Shown piece after piece: positions 7,425 to 32,482 of a stretch of DNA of 64,000 nucleotides. The stretch spans positions 372,001 through 436,000 of the forward strand of contig NZ_CP043178.1 in assembly GCF_014217545.1 (NCBI RefSeq). Direction: 5' to 3'. Every line of letters begins with the position of its first letter. Within the stretch, counting starts at the first letter, position 1. The translations under genes and the position numbers were made by a program. The DNA comes from Pseudarthrobacter sp. NBSH8 (GTDB taxonomy: Bacteria; Actinomycetota; Actinomycetes; Actinomycetales; Micrococcaceae). Below the pieces are notes generated by a model that worked only from the letters and a program-made list of their open reading frames with translations, was not told where the DNA came from and searched no databases.

Positions 7425-7671
7425 GTGGTCCTCCTTCGCCGGGTCCGGGATTAGCACCGTATTGGCTGGTCAGGCTTCCACGCTAATTCCGGGACTCGCG
7501 AAAAACAAGGAAGCAGTAAGGTTGCTTGCTTCCGTGGTGGGCCGTTAGCCCCAGACGCTTTACAGCCCGCCCTGCTGCGGCCACAATGGGTCGCATCACA
7601 GCGCTGTGGAACAGCGTGCTGTCACTCGAAGCCTGTCAAGGGAAAACCTGTCAAAGAAGAGGGGCGCCACC

Positions 7672-8517
7672 ATGAATGACCAAGCGGACGTAGACGAGGC
7701 AGACCGGGCACTGAAGCAAAAGCACCGGGCCATGTGGGCCTCGGGGGATTACCCGGCACTGGCCAGTGAACTGGTACAGGATCTCGGGGCCATTCTGGTT
7801 GATGCCTGCGGAATCAAGCCGAAGCAGCACGTTTTGGACGTGGCTGCCGGTGCCGGCAACGCGGCCATCCCTGCGGCCATGATGGGCGCCCATGTTGTGG
7901 CCAGCGACCTCACCCCGGAACTGTTCTACGCCGGGCGACGGCAGGCTGCCGATCGCGGCGTTGGGCTTGAATGGGTGGAAGCGGACGCCGAGTCCCTGCC
8001 GTTCGAGGACGATTCGTTTGACGTGGTCACGTCCTGCCTGGGCGTGATGTTCGCGCCGCACCATCAGGCCGGAGCGGACGAAATTGTCCGGGTATGCAAA
8101 CCCGGCGGCACCATAGGCCTGCTCAGTTGGACGCCCGAAGGCTTCATCGGAAGGATGTTTGCCACCATGAAGCCGCTCGCGCCGCCGCCTTCGCCCGGAG
8201 CCCAGCCGCCGCCGCTGTGGGGAAGCGAGGACCACGTGCGGGAACTCTTCGGTAGCAGGATCACCGATATCCAGGCGAAGAAGCGTTCGCTGGCCATCCG
8301 CAGTTTCCACCAGCCGGAGGACTTCCTGCGGTACTTCAAGTCCCACGACGGCCCCACCATCTCGGTCTATAAGTTCATTGGCGATGACAAGGATAAGGCG
8401 CAGGCCCTGGACAAAGCGCTCACCGAACTGGCCGATTCCTTTGGCGAGGCCCACGGTGATGCCGCGTGGCAAATGGATTGGGAATATCTGCTGTTGACCG
8501 CGAAGGAGGCCAGGTAG
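7672..8517 (+). CDS. class I SAM-dependent methyltransferase
   Basis: 281 residues. Motif I is VLDVAAGAGNAAIPAA at about residues 47-62, followed by HVVASDLTPELF (acidic SAM-ribose residue) and EADAESLPFEDDSFDVVTSCLG, the pattern of UbiE/Methyltransf_11 enzymes. The methyl acceptor is unknown. I prefer the ATG after GAGGGGCG over an open extension 22 codons upstream, because the methyltransferase homology begins downstream of it. Its TAG overlaps the GTG of the next gene, implying translational coupling. Confidence 0.85.
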   Translation: MNDQADVDEADRALKQKHRAMWASGDYPALASELVQDLGAILVDACGIKPKQHVLDVAAGAGNAAIPAAMMGAHVVASDLTPELFYAGRRQAADRGVGLEWVEADAESLPFEDDSFDVVTSCLGVMFAPHHQAGADEIVRVCKPGGTIGLLSWTPEGFIGRMFATMKPLAPPPSPGAQPPPLWGSEDHVRELFGSRITDIQAKKRSLAIRSFHQPEDFLRYFKSHDGPTISVYKFIGDDKDKAQALDKALTELADSFGEAHGDAAWQMDWEYLLLTAKEAR

Positions 8518-8948
8518 TGGCCGGGAATCTTGTGGCCACGTCCACCATCACCATCGAAGCTCCGGCGGACCGCGTCTGGACGGTCATCACCGATCCCGCC
8601 GCCGTCAAGGAGTTCATGTTCGGCGCGGATCTGGAAACCGACTGGACGGAAGGAAGCCCCATCGCCTGGCGCGGGGAGTGGGAAGGCAAACCCTACGAAG
8701 ATAAGGGCGAGATCCTCGAGGTAGACCCCGGCCGCAGGCTGGTCCATTCGCACTTCAGCCCGCTGGGCGGTCAGGAAGACAAGCCGGAAAATTACCACCC
8801 GCTCACCTGGACCCTCGAGGGCCAGGGCGGTGCAACAACGCTCACGCTCTCGCAGGACAACAACGCCAACGAAGACGCAGCGGAACACTCCAAGGGCATG
8901 TGGGACATGCTCGTGGCGGACGTCAAGAAGATCGCAGAACGCGGCTAA
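8517..8948 (+). CDS. SRPBCC (AHSA1/START-like) protein
   Basis: 143 residues, beginning with GTG that shares two bases with the stop of the methyltransferase gene; AAGGAGG lies about 8 nt upstream inside that gene. The N-terminus STITIEAPADRVWTVITDP and the C-terminal WDMLVADVKKIAE helix are hallmarks of the AHSA1/START helix-grip fold, which forms a hydrophobic ligand cavity. Coupling to a methyltransferase suggests the pair acts on, or senses, the same small molecule; that is inference. Confidence 0.85.
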   Translation: MAGNLVATSTITIEAPADRVWTVITDPAAVKEFMFGADLETDWTEGSPIAWRGEWEGKPYEDKGEILEVDPGRRLVHSHFSPLGGQEDKPENYHPLTWTLEGQGGATTLTLSQDNNANEDAAEHSKGMWDMLVADVKKIAERG

Positions 8949-8952
8949 GAAA

Positions 8953-9010
8953 CCAGCGGCCGCCGTCGTACCTTCCCAGGAGAGGGGCCAGGCGCGACGG
9001 CGGCCGCTGG
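8953..9010. terminator. bidirectional hairpin terminator
   Basis: A 16-bp perfect stem, CCAGCGGCCGCCGTCG with its complement, around a 26-nt loop. It lies directly after the SRPBCC stop and 12 nt from the ptsH stop of the convergent fructose operon. Confidence 0.75.
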
Positions 9011-9021
9011 CGTCAGGCTGT

Positions 9022-9300
9022 TTACTCGGCGTCGTGGTCCGTTTCCAGGATCTGCGCCAGACGCTCCAGGGCGTCATCCGCGCCGGTACCTTCTGCACGG
9101 AGCACCACAACATCGCCGTGGGCGGCACCCAGGCTCATGAGGGACAGGATGCTGGCGGCGTCCATTGCCTCATCGACCGGCTCGCCCTGGCGGGCGATGG
9201 TGATGTCCAGGTCGAACTCGCCGGCGGCCTCGGCAAAGATGGCGGCGGGGCGGGCGTGCAGGCCTACTCGGCTGGCGACGGTTGCGGTGCGTTCTGACAT
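9022..9300 (-). CDS. ptsH: phosphocarrier protein HPr
   Basis: 92 residues. The active-site histidine is His15 in VGLHARPAA. The AASILSLMSLGA segment carries the region equivalent to the regulatory Ser46 loop of low-GC Gram-positives; here the serine is present but the flanking sequence is actinobacterial. HPr takes phosphate from enzyme I and passes it to the EIIA domain of FruA, encoded 68 nt upstream on the same strand. AGGAG 7 nt before the ATG chooses this start over an extended frame. Enzyme I (ptsI) is not in the window. Confidence 0.95.
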   Translation of the reverse strand: MSERTATVASRVGLHARPAAIFAEAAGEFDLDITIARQGEPVDEAMDAASILSLMSLGAAHGDVVVLRAEGTGADDALERLAQILETDHDAE

Positions 9301-9368
9301 TCTTGCTCCTATTGTCTTTCGGCGCGTCCGTTGGTTCAGCGCCGTGGGTGGTGGTGCGGTGCGGCCGG

Positions 9369-11429
9369 TCAAACCGTTACTGGAACCGACTCAACGGTAG
9401 CAGCGGGCTGGCGGACGGCCCAGCGCTTGAGAGCGATCACTGACAGGGCGGTGACGATGGTTCCTGCCGCAATGGCGACGACGAACATCAGGAAGTTATC
9501 GATTGCGAAGAACACGAAGATACCGCCGTGAGGGGCCTTGGATCCTACGCCCGCCGCCATGGAGATGGCGCCGGTGACAGCTCCACCGAGCATGCTGGCG
9601 GGGATAACGCGGAGCGGGTCAGCGGCAGCGAACGGGATGGCACCTTCGGAGATGAAGGAAGCTCCCAGCAGCCATGCTGCCTTTCCGTTTTCGCGCTCAG
9701 CAAGGCTGAAGCGCTTCTTGTCCAGGACTGTCGATGCCAGGGCCATGGCCAGCGGCGGCACCATGCCAGCGGCCATGACAGCTGCCATGACCTGCCACGG
9801 GGCCTGGTTATCCAAGGAAGCGGCACCAAGTCCGGCGACGGCGAAGGCATAGGCGACCTTGTTCACCGGGCCGCCGAGATCGAAGCACATCATGAGGCCC
9901 AGGATGACGCCCAGAGCGATGGCGCTGGCGCCGGTAAGGCCGGACAGCCACCCGTTCAGTCCCGCAGTAAGCGCAACGATCGGGCCACCGAGGATCAGGA
10001 ACATCAGGCCCGACGCGACCAGGGAGGCGAGCAGCGGGATGATCACCACCGGCATCAGGCCGCGCAACCAACGCGGCACGGCCCAACTTCCGATCACATG
10101 GGCGGCGTAACCGGCGAGCAAGCCGCCGACGATTCCACCGAGGAAGCCTGCGCCCATAAAGCCGGCAACGGCGCCGGCAACGAAGCCCGGTGCGATGCCT
10201 GGCCGGTCGGCGATCGCATACGCGATATAACCGGCCAGGGCAGGCACCAGGAAGCCCATGGACAGTGCGCCGATCTTGAAGAGCACGGCACCAAGGTAGG
10301 CGCCGAGTGGTCCCCAGGCGTTGTCAGGGTATTCGGTGGGCAGGTTGAAGATGCTGTTTTCCACCACGATCGCGTTGGCGAAATCAGTGATCAGGTAGCC
10401 GCCCAGCAGGAAGCCCAGGGCGATCAGCAGGCCACCACCGGCGACGAACGGGATCATGTAGCTGACACCGGTGAGGAGTGCCTTCTTCAGCTTTTGGCCG
10501 ATGTGTTCGCCCTTTTCGGTGGCTTCGTTCTCAGCCTGTTCCTCGGCCCCGAAGTGGGGGACTCGGCGCGCATTCGGATTGGCAGCGGCAGCGAGCGCCT
10601 CCTGGACCATCTTGGCCGGCTCGTCGATGCCGCGCTTGACGGGGGCGTTGATGACGGGCTTGCCGGCGAAGCGCTCCTTGCCGCGGACATCCACATCCAC
10701 GGCGAAGATCACGGCTTCGGCGGCGGCAATGACGGCAGGGTCAAGCGGCTTGGCGCCGGAGGAACCCTGGGTCTCCACCTGCAGGTCCACGCCCATTTCC
10801 TGGGCTGCGGCCACGAGTGAATCGGCGGCCATGTAGGTGTGGGCGATGCCGGTGGGGCACGCGGTCACGGCCACCAGACGCCGGGGGCCAGCGGTGGTTG
10901 AACCAGTAGCAAAAGCACCGGCAACAGCAGCAGCGGGCGCAGCTTCGGCAACAGCAGCAGCTGCGTGGGCCGCCGGCTTATCCGCCAAAGCGCCGTCCAC
11001 CAGTGCCACGACCTCTTCCCGCGAAGATGCATTGCGGAGTGCCGCAGTGAAATCCTTTTTGATCAGGGACCGGGCCAGCTTGGACAGCAGCTGCAGGTGC
11101 TCCTGGTCCGCGCCGTCGGGCGCAGCGATAAAGAAGACCAGGTCCGCGGGCCCGTCCTTGGCGCCGAAGTCCACCTTGGGGTTGAGCCGGGCCATGGCCA
11201 GCGTGGGTTCGATGACCGCAGCAGAGCGGCAGTGCGGGATGGCGATGCCGCCGGGGATGCCGGTGGCGGTCTTCTGTTCGCGGGCGAAGGCATCGGCGAA
11301 GAGGCCTTCGACTTCTGACGCGCGGCCGGTGGCAGCTACTTTGCTGGCCAGGTGCCGGATCACGTCCTCGGGCGAGGTGCCCAGGTTCTGGTCGAGCACG
11401 ACCAGTTCGGTGGTGATGAGCTGAGTCAC
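9369..11429 (-). CDS. fruA: fructose-specific PTS transporter EIIABC
   Basis: About 686 residues. EIIA occupies residues 1 to about 150 (GIAIPHCRS holds the phosphorylated His). EIIB spans about 190-290, with the phosphocysteine in VTACPTGIAHTYMAA. EIIC, about 330-670, is a multi-helix channel (SYMIPFVAGGGLLIALGFLL, MCFDLGGPVNKVAYAFA). An Ala-rich linker joins A and B. It imports fructose as fructose-1-phosphate. The GTG start has GAAAGGA just upstream and lies 2 nt after the fruK stop; the frame is open much further, inside fruK, but that is not coding. Operon fruR-fruK-fruA-ptsH. Confidence 0.95.
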   Translation of the reverse strand: MTQLITTELVVLDQNLGTSPEDVIRHLASKVAATGRASEVEGLFADAFAREQKTATGIPGGIAIPHCRSAAVIEPTLAMARLNPKVDFGAKDGPADLVFFIAAPDGADQEHLQLLSKLARSLIKKDFTAALRNASSREEVVALVDGALADKPAAHAAAAVAEAAPAAAVAGAFATGSTTAGPRRLVAVTACPTGIAHTYMAADSLVAAAQEMGVDLQVETQGSSGAKPLDPAVIAAAEAVIFAVDVDVRGKERFAGKPVINAPVKRGIDEPAKMVQEALAAAANPNARRVPHFGAEEQAENEATEKGEHIGQKLKKALLTGVSYMIPFVAGGGLLIALGFLLGGYLITDFANAIVVENSIFNLPTEYPDNAWGPLGAYLGAVLFKIGALSMGFLVPALAGYIAYAIADRPGIAPGFVAGAVAGFMGAGFLGGIVGGLLAGYAAHVIGSWAVPRWLRGLMPVVIIPLLASLVASGLMFLILGGPIVALTAGLNGWLSGLTGASAIALGVILGLMMCFDLGGPVNKVAYAFAVAGLGAASLDNQAPWQVMAAVMAAGMVPPLAMALASTVLDKKRFSLAERENGKAAWLLGASFISEGAIPFAAADPLRVIPASMLGGAVTGAISMAAGVGSKAPHGGIFVFFAIDNFLMFVVAIAAGTIVTALSVIALKRWAVRQPAATVESVPVTV

Positions 11430-28668: not shown

Positions 28669-29148
28669 ATGAAAGCGTCACCCACCCTTGCCAGCAACCT
28701 TCAGATGGTCCTCACGGACCTGATTGAGCTCCATCTCCAGGCCAAACAGGCCCACTGGAACATCGTGGGCACCAACTTCCGAGACCTTCACCTGCAACTG
28801 GACGAAATCATCGCCAGTGTCCGGCTGTTTGCCGACCAGACGGCAGAGCGGATGCGGGCACTGCACGCCTTGCCCGACGGGCGGAGCCGGACCGTAGCCG
28901 CAGACACACGCCTTGATGAGCTCACCGGCGGGCTGATTTCCACGAAGGAGGCCGTCAAGCTGGTCACGGCCAGGCTGGAGCGGACGGTGAAGACCATGCG
29001 GGATGTCCACGATGAGGTGGACGAAGAGGATCCCACCAGCGCCGACTTGCTGCATGCCGGCATCGAACGCCTGGAACAGCTGGCGTGGATGGTCAACGCC
29101 GAAACCATGACGCCGTCCACCGCCGTCACGGACCCGGCGGCAAAGTAG
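28669..29148 (+). CDS. dps: Dps-family DNA-binding ferritin-like protein
   Basis: 159 residues. The Dps ferroxidase signature is present: HLQAKQAHWNIVGTNFRDLH (His and Asp/His iron ligands) followed by LDEIIASVRLFADQTAERMR with the second-subunit ligands. Dps dodecamers oxidise and store iron and shield DNA during starvation and oxidative stress. No lysine-rich N-terminal tail, so DNA binding may be weak. GGAGG 8 nt before the ATG. Followed 22 nt later by the acyl-CoA-dehydrogenase-like gene with no terminator, so dps may share a transcript with the cassette. Confidence 0.92.
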   Translation: MKASPTLASNLQMVLTDLIELHLQAKQAHWNIVGTNFRDLHLQLDEIIASVRLFADQTAERMRALHALPDGRSRTVAADTRLDELTGGLISTKEAVKLVTARLERTVKTMRDVHDEVDEEDPTSADLLHAGIERLEQLAWMVNAETMTPSTAVTDPAAK

Positions 29149-29170: not shown

Positions 29171-30328
29171 ATGTCTGCATCGCCCCAGCGGCCTGTCCGC
29201 ATAATCTCAACTCAATCCGAACTGGCTTGGACAGTTCCCCTGCTCGACTCCGTGGCCTCCGCGGCAGGCGACGTTCCCGCGTTGCTGTCGTTGGCCCGGG
29301 AGGCAGGAGGCAACTGGCCGCAGCCAGGGGGCGGGCATACTGCCCATCTCTGGGAGCTGCTCGCTTCCGTCTCCGCCGTGGACGTTGCCGCCGGGCGTGT
29401 CTTCGAACCGCATGTGGATGCCCAAGCGATCCTTGCCCAGGCAGGGAACTATCGGGCGGGCCACGATCCGGCCGATCGCGCGGGGGCATGGGGAGTGTTT
29501 GCCGCCGAAGGCCCGGGGCTTCGCCTCGAAGCCAAGACCGGCGACGCCGGAATTCTCTTAAGCGGGTCCAAGCCGTGGTGTTCACTGGCCACGCTCCTGG
29601 ACCGGGCCGTTATCACTGCCCACACAGAAACCGGCGGACGAGCCGCCTTTGCTGTGGACCTCCGGCATCCGGGCGTGACCTGTGACGAGCCGGCATGGGT
29701 GGCCCGCGGGCTGCGGGAGATTCCCAGCGGTACGGTCCATTTCAGCCAAGTGCCCGCACAACAGCTGGGCAGCGACGGCTGGTATTTCAGCCGGCCCGGA
29801 TTTGCCTGGGGTGGCATGGGGGTAGCTGCCTGTTGGCTCGGGGGCGCCGTGGGCGTGGCACGGGATTACAAAGAGGCCTTGACTGCCGCAGCCCGGTCCG
29901 GCCGCGAACCTGACCAGATTGCCCTGGCTGCACTCGGCGAAACAGACAGGATCCTCACCGCCGCGCTCCAGTACCTGGCCCGAACGGCAACAGTTATTGA
30001 CGACGGCGGCCTGTCCACCGGGGAAGAAGCACCGGAGACTGGAGGCCGCAGCCCGGAAGCCAGGGAAAACCCCCGGAAGTCAGGGGCGCACACGGGGACG
30101 GACCGGAGCGTATGGAGCGATGCGTTACGCGTACGCGGAACCGTAGCGGCCGCCGTCGAACGCGTCCTCTCCCTGGTCAGCCAGAACCGGGGACCGGCGC
30201 CGCTGGCGTTCGACGAACCGTATGCCAAACGCATGGCGGACCTGGCGCTGTACGTGCGCCAGCACCATGCCATGCGGGACGACGCGCAGCTGGGAAAACT
30301 GACGCTGAAGGGGGAACATCTGTGGTGA
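29171..30328 (+). CDS. acyl-CoA-dehydrogenase-like flavoprotein
   Basis: 385 residues, similar in length to acyl-CoA dehydrogenases. The middle beta domain is suggested by DAGILLSGSKPWCSLATLLD and AAFAVDLRHPGVTC, with VPAQQLGSDGWYFSRPGFAW in the substrate/FAD region. The C-terminal helical bundle is interrupted by a polar insert (GGLSTGEEAPETGGRSPEAR and beyond). The N-terminal domain is poorly conserved and the usual catalytic glutamate cannot be assigned. First gene of a cassette with the PIG-L-methyltransferase and GT2 genes, overlapping the next by 7 nt. It probably oxidises or binds a product of those enzymes rather than serving fatty-acid degradation. Confidence 0.75.
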   Translation: MSASPQRPVRIISTQSELAWTVPLLDSVASAAGDVPALLSLAREAGGNWPQPGGGHTAHLWELLASVSAVDVAAGRVFEPHVDAQAILAQAGNYRAGHDPADRAGAWGVFAAEGPGLRLEAKTGDAGILLSGSKPWCSLATLLDRAVITAHTETGGRAAFAVDLRHPGVTCDEPAWVARGLREIPSGTVHFSQVPAQQLGSDGWYFSRPGFAWGGMGVAACWLGGAVGVARDYKEALTAAARSGREPDQIALAALGETDRILTAALQYLARTATVIDDGGLSTGEEAPETGGRSPEARENPRKSGAHTGTDRSVWSDALRVRGTVAAAVERVLSLVSQNRGPAPLAFDEPYAKRMADLALYVRQHHAMRDDAQLGKLTLKGEHLW

Positions 30329-31722
30329 CTTTTTCGCACACGGACCAGGGGACTGCCGAGGCCCGTTGGGCGGCGAGCGGGCTCGCCGCGATAGCGGAGT
30401 TGCCGTTGGGGCAAAATGAACTGGCTGCCATGCGGTTCGTGGTGTTGGCTGCACACCCCGACGACGAGACCCTGGGCGCAGGGGGCCTGCTGGCTCTGCT
30501 GCACTCGCTGGGCGCCGACGTCGAGGTGCTGCTGTGCACGGCGGGGGAGGGCTCGCACCCGGGCTCGGCGACAACCACGCCTGAACAGCTCGCCGCCGTC
30601 CGGCTTGAGGAGTTTGCGGCGGCGATGCGAGTCCTGGGGATGGCCGGACGCTGGCGCTTCCTCGGGTTGCCGGACAGGGGCCTGCAGGAACTGGCGCCGG
30701 AAATCGCCGGCCGGCTGCGCGAGGCCATTGGCCGATTCGCCGGCCCACCGCAGCAGCTGGCAATTGTGGCCCCTTATCGGGATGACGGGCACGCGGACCA
30801 CAACGCCCTCGGCGCGGTGGCCGCGGACGTCGCCGGCGAAGATGGGCACGGCCTGCTGGAGTATCCCATCTGGTACTGGCTGTGGGCCTCCCCGGAGGAC
30901 CCTGCGTGGCGGTCCTGGTCGCGCGTTCCGCTAAGTACTGAACAGCAGGCGGCGAAGAGATCCGCCATGGACTCACACACGAGCCAGATACGTCCGCTGT
31001 CGGGGCTGGCGGGAGACGAAGTGCTCCTCGGCGAGGGGCTGCTGCAACATTTCAGGCGCGCTTTTGAGACATTCGCCTGGACGCCGCCCGGGGCCCAACT
31101 GGTCCACTCCCCTCCCCATTCCAGCGCGGACGCGCAACGGATCTTCGACGCCGTGCACGCGAAGTCCGATGACCCCTGGGCGTACACCACCAGCTGGTAC
31201 GAGCGGCGCAAGCGCACCCTCACCCTCGCCGCACTGCCCCAGGAGACCTACCTTTCTGGCCTGGAAATCGGCTGCTCCATCGGAACATTGACCGCCGAAC
31301 TGGCCCCCAGATGCACCAGCCTGCTTGCCGTGGATGCCAGCGGTACCGCGCTTGAGCTTGCGGCCCGCCGTCTCGCGCCGTTTCCCGGCGTCAGCACGCG
31401 GCAGTTGACGCTCCCTGCCGACTGGCCTGGGGGCCGCTTTGACCTCGTGGTGGTCTCCGAGGTGGGCTACTACCTGTCGGCGGCAGAGCTGGAGCTGCTG
31501 CTGCAGCGGATCCAGGAATCGATGGCGCCGGGCGGCACGCTGCTGCTGTGCCACTGGCGGCACCCGGTTTCCGGATGGGAGCTCGACGGCGACTCGGTCC
31601 ACGCGCTGGCCCGGAACCGGCTGCGGTGGCCCACCGCCGGTCTGTACCAGGAACGCGATTTTGTGCTGGAAACGCTCGTGGCTCCCGCCGATGCCGCCGA
31701 TCCCGGACCTCCGGTGTCCTGA
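30322..31722 (+). CDS. PIG-L deacetylase fused to a class I SAM methyltransferase
   Basis: 466 residues, two enzymes in one chain. Residues about 35-230 are PIG-L/LmbE: FVVLAAHPDDETLGAGGLLA (zinc ligands in HPDDE) and APYRDDGHADHNALGAVA (HADH), as in MshB and GlcNAc-PI deacetylases. Residues about 285-450 are a NodS-like methyltransferase: YEQ-like WYERRKRTLTLAAL, motif I GLEIGCSIGTLTAELAPRCT near 313, acidic motif LLAVDASGTALELA, FDLVVVSEVGYYLSAAELEL and GGTLLLCHWRHPV. The joined activities suggest N-deacetylation of an acetamido sugar followed by methylation. GTG start after AAGGGGG, inside the end of the previous gene; a second GTG follows at once. The next gene starts 1 nt after its stop. 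Confidence 0.88.
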   Translation: MVTFSHTDQGTAEARWAASGLAAIAELPLGQNELAAMRFVVLAAHPDDETLGAGGLLALLHSLGADVEVLLCTAGEGSHPGSATTTPEQLAAVRLEEFAAAMRVLGMAGRWRFLGLPDRGLQELAPEIAGRLREAIGRFAGPPQQLAIVAPYRDDGHADHNALGAVAADVAGEDGHGLLEYPIWYWLWASPEDPAWRSWSRVPLSTEQQAAKRSAMDSHTSQIRPLSGLAGDEVLLGEGLLQHFRRAFETFAWTPPGAQLVHSPPHSSADAQRIFDAVHAKSDDPWAYTTSWYERRKRTLTLAALPQETYLSGLEIGCSIGTLTAELAPRCTSLLAVDASGTALELAARRLAPFPGVSTRQLTLPADWPGGRFDLVVVSEVGYYLSAAELELLLQRIQESMAPGGTLLLCHWRHPVSGWELDGDSVHALARNRLRWPTAGLYQERDFVLETLVAPADAADPGPPVS

Positions 31723-31723
31723 G

Positions 31724-32482
31724 ATGGGCGGGATCGAGCAGGTTGCCGCGGTTATTCCGGTCCATAACGAGGAACCGCACCTGGCACGTGCGCTGGCAGC
31801 GCTCAGTAGCGCAGCTGATGCGCTGCAGCAAAGCCAACCGGACATCGACGTCTCCATAGTGGTGGTTTTGGACGCCTGCACGGACGGCTCGGGCTCCGTG
31901 GCAGCGCGGTTTGCAGCGGCGGATGGCCGCATCGCCCTGCTGCCGGTCGCGTTCCGCAGCGTGGGGAGGAGCCGGCGGGCAGGGATCAACCTGCTTCTCG
32001 CAGGACGCTGGCCGGACCGTTCGCGGGCGGGCCGTGTGCTGGCCACCGAACGGGTGTGGCTGGCCAATACAGACGCCGATTCCTGCGTTCCGGAAAACTG
32101 GCTCCTGCGCCAGGTGGAACTGGCTGACCGCGGCGCCGATGCAGTCTTGGGAACGGTGGAACCGGATCCGGCGGGGATGGACGGCGAACTCCTGCGGCGC
32201 TGGCACGTCCGGCATAAGCTGGGGGAGGACCATCCCCACGTGTACGGTGCGAATTTCGGGGTACGGGCCTCGGCCTACATTGGTGCTGGTGGCTTTCCCC
32301 GCCAGCGCTCGCATGAGGACCGGGCACTGGCAGCACAGCTACGCCGCAACGGGTACCGGATTACTTCCACGGACACGGTCCGGGTTGTGACCTCCGGGCG
32401 GACCGAGGCCCGGGCGCCGCAGGGATTCGGCGCATATCTGCTGTCCCTTGGCATGGAATCCGCGGTGGCGTTCGAACGCTGA
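31724..32482 (+). CDS. family 2 glycosyltransferase
   Basis: 252 residues, GT-A fold. AAVIPVHNEEPHLARALAAL starts the nucleotide-sugar fold, VVLDACTDGSGSVAARFAA follows, VWLANTDADSCVPENWLL carries the metal-binding DxD, and YIGAGGFPRQRSHEDRALAA supplies the acceptor-site ED motif. No membrane helices, so it acts in the cytoplasm. It would transfer the sugar that the PIG-L part later deacetylates. Last gene of the cassette; no terminator hairpin is clear in the 200 nt before the convergent YihY gene. Confidence 0.88.
   Translation: MGGIEQVAAVIPVHNEEPHLARALAALSSAADALQQSQPDIDVSIVVVLDACTDGSGSVAARFAAADGRIALLPVAFRSVGRSRRAGINLLLAGRWPDRSRAGRVLATERVWLANTDADSCVPENWLLRQVELADRGADAVLGTVEPDPAGMDGELLRRWHVRHKLGEDHPHVYGANFGVRASAYIGAGGFPRQRSHEDRALAAQLRRNGYRITSTDTVRVVTSGRTEARAPQGFGAYLLSLGMESAVAFER

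What the first reader, a model, noticed from the sequence alone, without database searches (positions are those of the whole stretch)
29171..32482. Three-gene cassette: acyl-CoA-dehydrogenase-like, PIG-L deacetylase fused to methyltransferase, GT2 glycosyltransferase
The three genes overlap or abut (7-nt overlap, then 1-nt gap), so they act as one unit. Together they could transfer an acetamido sugar, deacetylate it, methylate it and oxidise or dehydrogenate the product. GT plus PIG-L recalls mycothiol synthesis (MshA/MshB), but the GT is family 2, the deacetylase carries its own methyltransferase and there is no Cys ligase. No pathway known to me uses this set. Position after dps and before envelope-stress genes hints at a stress-linked glycoconjugate. 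I believe similar neighbourhoods exist in other bacteria but could not verify it.
Basis: partly seen in the sequence, partly recalled or inferred. Interest (0 to 1): 0.75.

Follow-up and report, generated by a model that had tools for sequence, protein, structure and literature searches.

The report
Conserved stress-linked amino-sugar modification cassette
Three overlapping genes next to a stress-protection gene form a cassette that recurs in at least six bacterial phyla and probably builds a modified amino sugar (acetyl group removed, then methylated, perhaps oxidised); I found no report of what it makes.

Summary
In detail: a flavoprotein of acyl-CoA-dehydrogenase (ACAD) fold, a PIG-L/NodS-like methyltransferase fusion and a small GT2 abut at 29171-32482, 22 bp after dps. 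It is not strain-specific. The same functions sit together in Actinomycetota, Pseudomonadota, Bacteroidota, Cyanobacteriota, Deinococcota and (one MAG) Acidobacteriota. Of 80 loci found through the methyltransferase alone, 74 have the flavoprotein nearby, 64 PIG-L, 59 a GT; only 1 of the 80 has PIG-L and methyltransferase in one frame. Two things sharpen the reading. In one actinobacterial family PIG-L is replaced by a NodB-fold deacetylase, with a ferredoxin-reductase-type flavoenzyme added (8 of 8 loci fetched), so deacetylation seems to be the step that is kept. The 'dehydrogenase' lacks the ACAD catalytic Glu in 58 of 58 aligned sequences; by profile its best PDB matches are DszC-type monooxygenases, though the window protein alone matches ACADs best. 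Best reading: deacetylate, then N-methylate an amino sugar (as NodB/NodS do), with flavin-dependent oxidation. In published A. baumannii data a four-gene version falls together with trehalose genes. Substrate, order and product are inferred.

The parts
28669..29148 (+). dps (ferritin-like stress protein), directly upstream, 22 bp before the cassette; perhaps the first gene of the same transcript (inferred)
   Evidence: Pfam Ferritin 71.7 bits; NCBIfam Dps 79.9 bits, below its cut-off of 114; dps just upstream in 9 of 25 same-genus loci, own included, plus one partial match, where only about 0.3 kb upstream was held
29171..30328 (+). flavoprotein of acyl-CoA-dehydrogenase fold, probably a flavin-dependent monooxygenase-like enzyme
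   Evidence: against:
30322..31722 (+). fusion protein: PIG-L-type deacetylase plus NodS-like SAM methyltransferase
30439..30828 (+). PIG-L domain with the conserved HPDDE and H-x-D-H motifs (zinc ligands by analogy, recalled)
   Evidence: residues 40-169; H45, D47, D48, E49, H157, D159, H160 invariant in 9 of 9 aligned
31162..31626 (+). NodS-like methyltransferase domain
   Evidence: residues 281-435; PDB 4isc E 1.6e-42, NodS 3ofj E 9.3e-15
31724..32482 (+). small GT2 glycosyltransferase with TDAD and late E-D motifs
   Evidence: Pfam GT2; D117, D119, E198, D199 invariant in 7 of 7 aligned

Best explanation
A stress-linked biosynthetic cassette that makes and modifies an amino-sugar conjugate. 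Proposed sequence: the GT2 attaches an N-acetylated sugar to a small acceptor; PIG-L (a NodB-fold enzyme in one lineage) removes the acetyl group; the NodS-like methyltransferase N-methylates the freed amine; and the flavoprotein oxidises the same centre or a neighbour using reduced flavin and O2, as its DszC/nitrososynthase-like relatives do. SHOWN: gene content, order, breadth, deacetylase replacement, fold, and absence of the ACAD catalytic Glu. INFERRED: substrate, acceptor, order, N-methylation, monooxygenation, and that the product protects against oxidative or drying stress.
For: Conserved unit: of the 80 genome-contig loci kept (best of 566 confirmed) and found through the methyltransferase, 61 have both flavoprotein and PIG-L nearby and 51 also a GT; 7 of 7 annotated plasmid loci have flavoprotein, PIG-L and MT adjacent in that order. 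Of 30 Actinomycetota loci found through the flavoprotein (own included), 28 have the MT within the 1.5-kb flank. Deacetylation is kept: 8 of 8 f34 loci fetched (of 16 f34 genomes with a match) have a NodB-fold enzyme in place of PIG-L; the two scanned match NodB best in NCBIfam. NodS-type methylation follows NodB deacetylation in rhizobia (PMC5080398, passages). Flavoprotein: the family profile's best PDB hits are DszC (E 8e-34), methanesulfinate monooxygenase (1e-28) and TdsC, then two chains named 'acyl-CoA dehydrogenase type 2 domain protein', two 'FAD-dependent oxidoreductases' and a nitrososynthase; the other ACADs and DnmZ come after. The catalytic Glu column is P 41, H 16, A 1 of 58, with no Glu within 6 columns in any of the 58. 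8 of 8 f34 loci fetched add a ferredoxin-reductase-type flavoenzyme. A review calls AlnG a putative flavin-dependent ACAD proposed for N-hydroxylation (PMC7347517, passages). Stress: 22 bp after dps; A. baumannii ACICU_02432-02435 (GT, MT, LmbE, ACAD-related) fall 31- to 62-fold in colistin-dependent mutants, as trehalose synthesis genes also fall (PMC5660220, passages); catalase genes in 5 of 32 loci (one cut by the locus end) against 0.17 expected from the same 32 genomes.
Confidence: 0.5

Rival explanations
1. The flavoprotein is a true dehydrogenase or oxidase that desaturates or oxidatively demethylates a sugar or acyl group; the cassette makes a glycolipid or acyl-sugar.
Against: The Glu base of ACADs is absent in 58 of 58 aligned sequences; DszC-type monooxygenases lead the family-profile search; no acyl-CoA ligase is among the features annotated in 7 plasmid loci.
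Confidence: 0.2
2. The cassette tailors a surface polysaccharide or exopolysaccharide rather than a soluble small molecule.
For: Extra glycosyltransferases lie beside the cassette in Novosphingobium, Deinococcus with a UDP-galactopyranose mutase and Pedobacter.
Against: No polymerase, flippase or polysaccharide export gene recurs among the features annotated in 7 plasmid loci; the GT is small and matched only as a generic GT2.
Confidence: 0.2
3. The PIG-L supplies the missing MshB step of mycothiol synthesis.
For: The genome has MshC over cut-off and Mca but no MshB over cut-off.
Against: 0 of 37 same-genus genomes have MshB over cut-off, including the 9 without the fusion; the cassette occurs in phyla not known to make mycothiol (recalled).
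Confidence: 0.03

Closest known systems
Nod-factor modification enzymes NodB and NodS (with NodC as GT2, recalled)
   Same: GT2, N-deacetylase and NodS-family methyltransferase; in one lineage the deacetylase is NodB-fold too. NodS acts only after deacetylation (PMC5080398, passages).
   Different: No NodA-type acyltransferase among the features annotated in 7 plasmid loci; the MT is far below the NodS equivalog cut-off (64.4 of 300 bits); a flavoprotein is added; many hosts do not nodulate; the GT is small.
Mycothiol and bacillithiol synthesis (MshA/MshB, BshA/BshB)
   Same: Glycosyl transfer then PIG-L deacetylation.
   Different: GT2 not GT4 (family of MshA recalled), no Cys ligase in the cassette, extra methyltransferase and flavoprotein; PIG-L domain below MshB, Mca and BshB cut-offs.
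DszC/TdsC, SfnB and amino-sugar nitrososynthases (flavin-dependent monooxygenases of ACAD fold)
   Same: Fold, best family-profile matches, Ser equivalent to DszC S163 kept in 53 of 58, Thr in 5.
   Different: Own invariant set R76, E79, H81, R363, Q364; DszC H92 and H391 positions are R and Q; the window protein reaches no curated cut-off.
A. baumannii stress operon ACICU_02432-02435 and the katE/dtpABC desiccation cluster
   Same: Same four functions listed in reverse order (PMC5660220, passages). On an A. johnsonii plasmid the cassette lies near catalase, an iron-containing redox enzyme and trehalose genes.
   Different: Four separate genes; no function assigned. That the ACICU genes are the cassette rests on names and order, plus adjacent matches to flavoprotein (28.4%) and fusion (33.6%) in A. 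baumannii records.

Membership tests
Acyl-CoA dehydrogenases | three-part ACAD fold | tested here: met
Acyl-CoA dehydrogenases | catalytic Glu of the EGT motif | tested here: not met
   column aligned with the EGT Glu of three ACAD-type proteins of the same genome (L172, L175, L176) is P 41, H 16, A 1 of 58; no Glu within 6 columns in any of 58, though 42 have an Asp 3 columns on
Acyl-CoA dehydrogenases | alternative Glu of isovaleryl-CoA-type enzymes | tested here: inconclusive
   no Glu in the matching stretch of the rows printed, but no isovaleryl-CoA dehydrogenase was in the alignment
DszC/SfnB-type flavin monooxygenases | score over the curated cut-off | tested here: not met
   SfnB 20.5 of 430.9 bits for the window protein; 55 of 58 aligned sequences match SfnB and 41 of 58 DszC at E up to 1e-3
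DszC/SfnB-type flavin monooxygenases | active-site His pair (H92, H391; roles recalled) | tested here: not met
   aligned residues are invariant R76 and Q364 (alignment, counts)
DszC/SfnB-type flavin monooxygenases | oxygenation with reduced flavin | not testable with these tools
   needs an enzyme assay
PIG-L deacetylases | Pfam cut-off and zinc motifs | tested here: met
   88.2 bits; motif residues invariant in 9 of 9
MshB/Mca/BshB | equivalog cut-offs | tested here: not met
   MshB 40.3/224.35, Mca 33.5/277.15, BshB1 50.2/182.5, BshB2 34.6/195.25 bits
NodS | Pfam NodS family | tested here: met
   52.4 bits, cut-off 24
NodS | NCBIfam NodS equivalog | tested here: not met
   64.4 of 300 bits
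GT2 | Pfam cut-off and acidic motifs | tested here: met
   48.9 bits; D117, D119, E198, D199 invariant in 7 of 7
Mycothiol pathway | PIG-L is the genome's MshB | tested here: not met
   9 same-genus genomes lack both the fusion and an MshB over cut-off; indirect, no enzyme test

The most novel reading that the evidence does not exclude
The cassette makes an N-methyl-N-oxidised amino-sugar conjugate (hydroxylamine or nitrone type) that acts as a radical-scavenging or metal-binding protectant in dried, starved or oxidatively stressed cells: a second, unrecognised class of low-mass protectant beside the bacterial thiols, present in at least six phyla and carried on plasmids.
Probability: 0.12. 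Interest if true: 0.88.

Novelty: new variant of a known kind. Interest (0 to 1): 0.62.

Why it matters
A biosynthetic unit kept together across at least six phyla, and falling together with trehalose genes in a hospital bacterium known for surviving drying, has no product that I could find in print. The parts point to a testable chemistry, and the natural swap of PIG-L for a NodB-fold enzyme tells the chemist which step to look for. If the product is a protectant it would bear on a long-standing question: what, besides thiols, trehalose and hydrophilins, keeps dry or starved bacteria alive.

Tried and rejected
Mycothiol: the genome lacks MshB over cut-off, which looked promising, but 9 same-genus genomes lack both the fusion and MshB.

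A sigma-F-type promoter (GTTT-N14-18-GGGTA, motif recalled) was sought in the window: 0 matches, 0.63 expected, so the stress link of this copy rests on its neighbour dps and on relatives.

The Acinetobacter iron-containing redox enzyme as a constant partner: no match in the other loci compared.

Fold comparison could not tell dehydrogenase from monooxygenase: the best of each lie within 2 Z units. The plain Foldseek search never ran. Amino-sugar nitrososynthases were not among the 50 entries that one search shows; that says nothing against them.

The first alignment against the genome's own ACADs used 43 of the 58 rows and held one wrong frame (L174, not an ACAD). It was redone with all 58 rows and three ACAD-type proteins; the Glu column came out the same.

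Careful tree: not finished; the tree used is the quick one. It puts the 8 f34 loci on one branch (support 100) and the Pedobacter fusion inside Bacteroidota with Spirosoma (support 99), away from the fusions of the window's order. Its count of changes leaves out 57 rows in no group, so I do not use that number.

Literature: nine searches (open-licence PMC only). Searches list 20 of 158 and 20 of 120 papers, so the rest were not seen. I found no paper on the cassette's function. PMC5660220 (passages) tabulates the A. baumannii operon; I did not see the table's footnotes. In PMC12742793 (passages) the locus ABUW_2433-2443 falls in a relA mutant; whether it includes the cassette was not shown. 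PMC13232832 (abstract, introduction, passages) covers dtpC/katE only. PMC6181384 and PMC10325922 gave no passage for my terms. PMC7347517 (passages) does not name KijD3 or ORF36.
Full report
OBSERVATION. The first is 22 bp downstream of dps, so the unit may be four genes long (inferred; no transcript data). The genome is a single 4.06-Mb contig; the best named protein hits are Pseudarthrobacter and Arthrobacter.

BREADTH. In the same genus the fusion is present at E < 1e-100 in 27 of 36 other genomes; the 9 without it include one that is 68% complete. All 25 loci fetched by that search, the window's own included, carry flavoprotein, PIG-L, MT and GT. One of them, L027, has PIG-L and MT in separate frames with in-frame stops, so it may be broken. 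In G002 the flavoprotein and dps remain but the fusion is gone and only residues 223-250 of the GT match, the look of an internal deletion. tblastn against plasmids found 139 records with a match, 26 of them with one place covering at least 80% of the fusion. I fetched 8 of the 40 listed; the 7 with annotation (Pandoraea, Acinetobacter, Kitasatospora, Deinococcus, Sulfitobacter, Bradyrhizobium, Novosphingobium) all show flavoprotein, PIG-L and MT as three adjacent genes in the same order, with a GT annotated next on the same strand in 4 and on the other strand in 2; in Kitasatospora a GT is seen only by profile. The eighth, Nostoc, has no annotation; profiles find all four there.

The neighbours were not part of that query. 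With profiles built from the plasmid loci and the window, 74 of 80 have the flavoprotein and 64 PIG-L within 3.5 kb, 61 both, 59 a GT within 4.5 kb and 51 all. Fifteen of the 80 loci are under 12 kb, so some misses may be contig ends. Only 1 of 80, Pedobacter L064, has PIG-L and MT in one reading frame. The named loci are mostly Alphaproteobacteria, with Bacteroidota, Cyanobacteriota and one Acidobacteriota MAG (L069; no GT in the DNA held); with Actinomycetota, Deinococcota and other Pseudomonadota from the plasmids that makes six phyla. In 296 Actinomycetota genomes the flavoprotein profile matched 34, own included, at E up to 1e-30; of the 30 loci given, 28 have the MT within the 1.5-kb flank. 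So flavoprotein plus MT is the most constant pair.

WHAT VARIES. (a) PIG-L and MT are fused in the window's genus and in some other genomes of its order, and in Pedobacter, which the quick tree places inside Bacteroidota. (b) In 16 of the 30 Actinomycetota loci no PIG-L and no GT was seen in the short flank. I fetched 8 of these 16 at 17-18 kb, all of family f34 (16 f34 genomes have a match): 8 of 8 contain a NodB-fold deacetylase upstream of the flavoprotein and a pyridine-nucleotide FAD enzyme between MT and GT. One of the deacetylases and two of the FAD enzymes were scanned with Pfam, two of each with NCBIfam, the rest matched by blastp. NCBIfam's best match for the first is NodB (124.9 and 112.1 bits, cut-off 240) and for the second ferredoxin-NAD reductases (208 of 450 and 198.3 of 650 bits); PDB hits of the second include rubredoxin and ferredoxin reductases. 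The replacement of one deacetylase fold by another in an otherwise similar cassette is, to me, the strongest functional hint. (c) In six cyanobacterial loci the MT carries an N-terminal HAD hydrolase, which hints at a phosphorylated intermediate. (d) In 13 of 80 loci, all Methylobacterium, flavoprotein and MT have no PIG-L or NodB-like gene in the DNA held; this is unexplained. In 3 further loci neither flavoprotein nor PIG-L was found, and in 3 PIG-L without the flavoprotein within the set distance.

MECHANISM. In rhizobia, chitooligomers are never N-methylated unless deacetylated first (PMC5080398, passages). The cassette has that pair of activities by family, in either deacetylase fold, plus a GT and a redox flavoprotein. 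N-oxidation is the natural guess because amino-sugar N-oxygenases share the fold (recalled; nitrososynthase), but S- or C-oxidation are not excluded.

STRESS. dps here; catalase, CsbD, DUF883, trehalose genes, Ku/LigD, a ferritin-like protein or spore photoproduct lyase in one or more plasmid loci. Catalase genes lie in 5 of 32 loci (4 in the stricter comparison) where 0.17 are expected from 66 catalase matches in 202 Mb of the same genomes (Poisson 1e-6 for 5, 3e-5 for 4); one of the five is cut by the locus end, the loci are not independent, the genomes of 32 of the 80 loci were examined, and the test was chosen after the plasmid loci had been seen. In A. baumannii, ACICU_02432-02435 fall 31- to 62-fold in colistin-dependent mutants, among 33 down-regulated genes that include trehalose synthesis genes (PMC5660220 table passages).

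VERDICT. Real, widespread, apparently uncharacterised, and more interesting as a cassette than as a fusion. New variant of a known kind.

Noticed in passing
L166 (G002) 7432-9425: A same-genus genome keeps dps and the flavoprotein but has lost the fusion and nearly all of the GT, as by one internal deletion.
   Followed up: partly
L091, L094, L099, L102, L107, L112: Cyanobacterial versions fuse a HAD hydrolase to the methyltransferase.
   Followed up: partly
L032 5525-7885: The Deinococcus gobiensis flavoprotein carries roughly 400 extra N-terminal residues with no Pfam match.
   Followed up: no
L053, L060, L066, L072, L077, L079, L088, L092: In Methylobacterium loci without PIG-L, a short ORF that clusters with LigD lies just before the flavoprotein.
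   Followed up: no
own genome, 1170942-1171802 and 2097168-2098439: Mca and MshC are present but no MshB over cut-off, here or in 36 same-genus genomes; Mca may do the MshB step.
   Followed up: partly
L030 4846-6252: On an A. johnsonii plasmid an 'iron-containing redox enzyme' gene, catalase and trehalose genes flank the cassette; likeness to DtpC of PMC13232832 is inferred from annotation, not compared.
   Followed up: partly
L027: One same-genus copy has PIG-L and MT in separate frames with two in-frame TAG.
   Followed up: no
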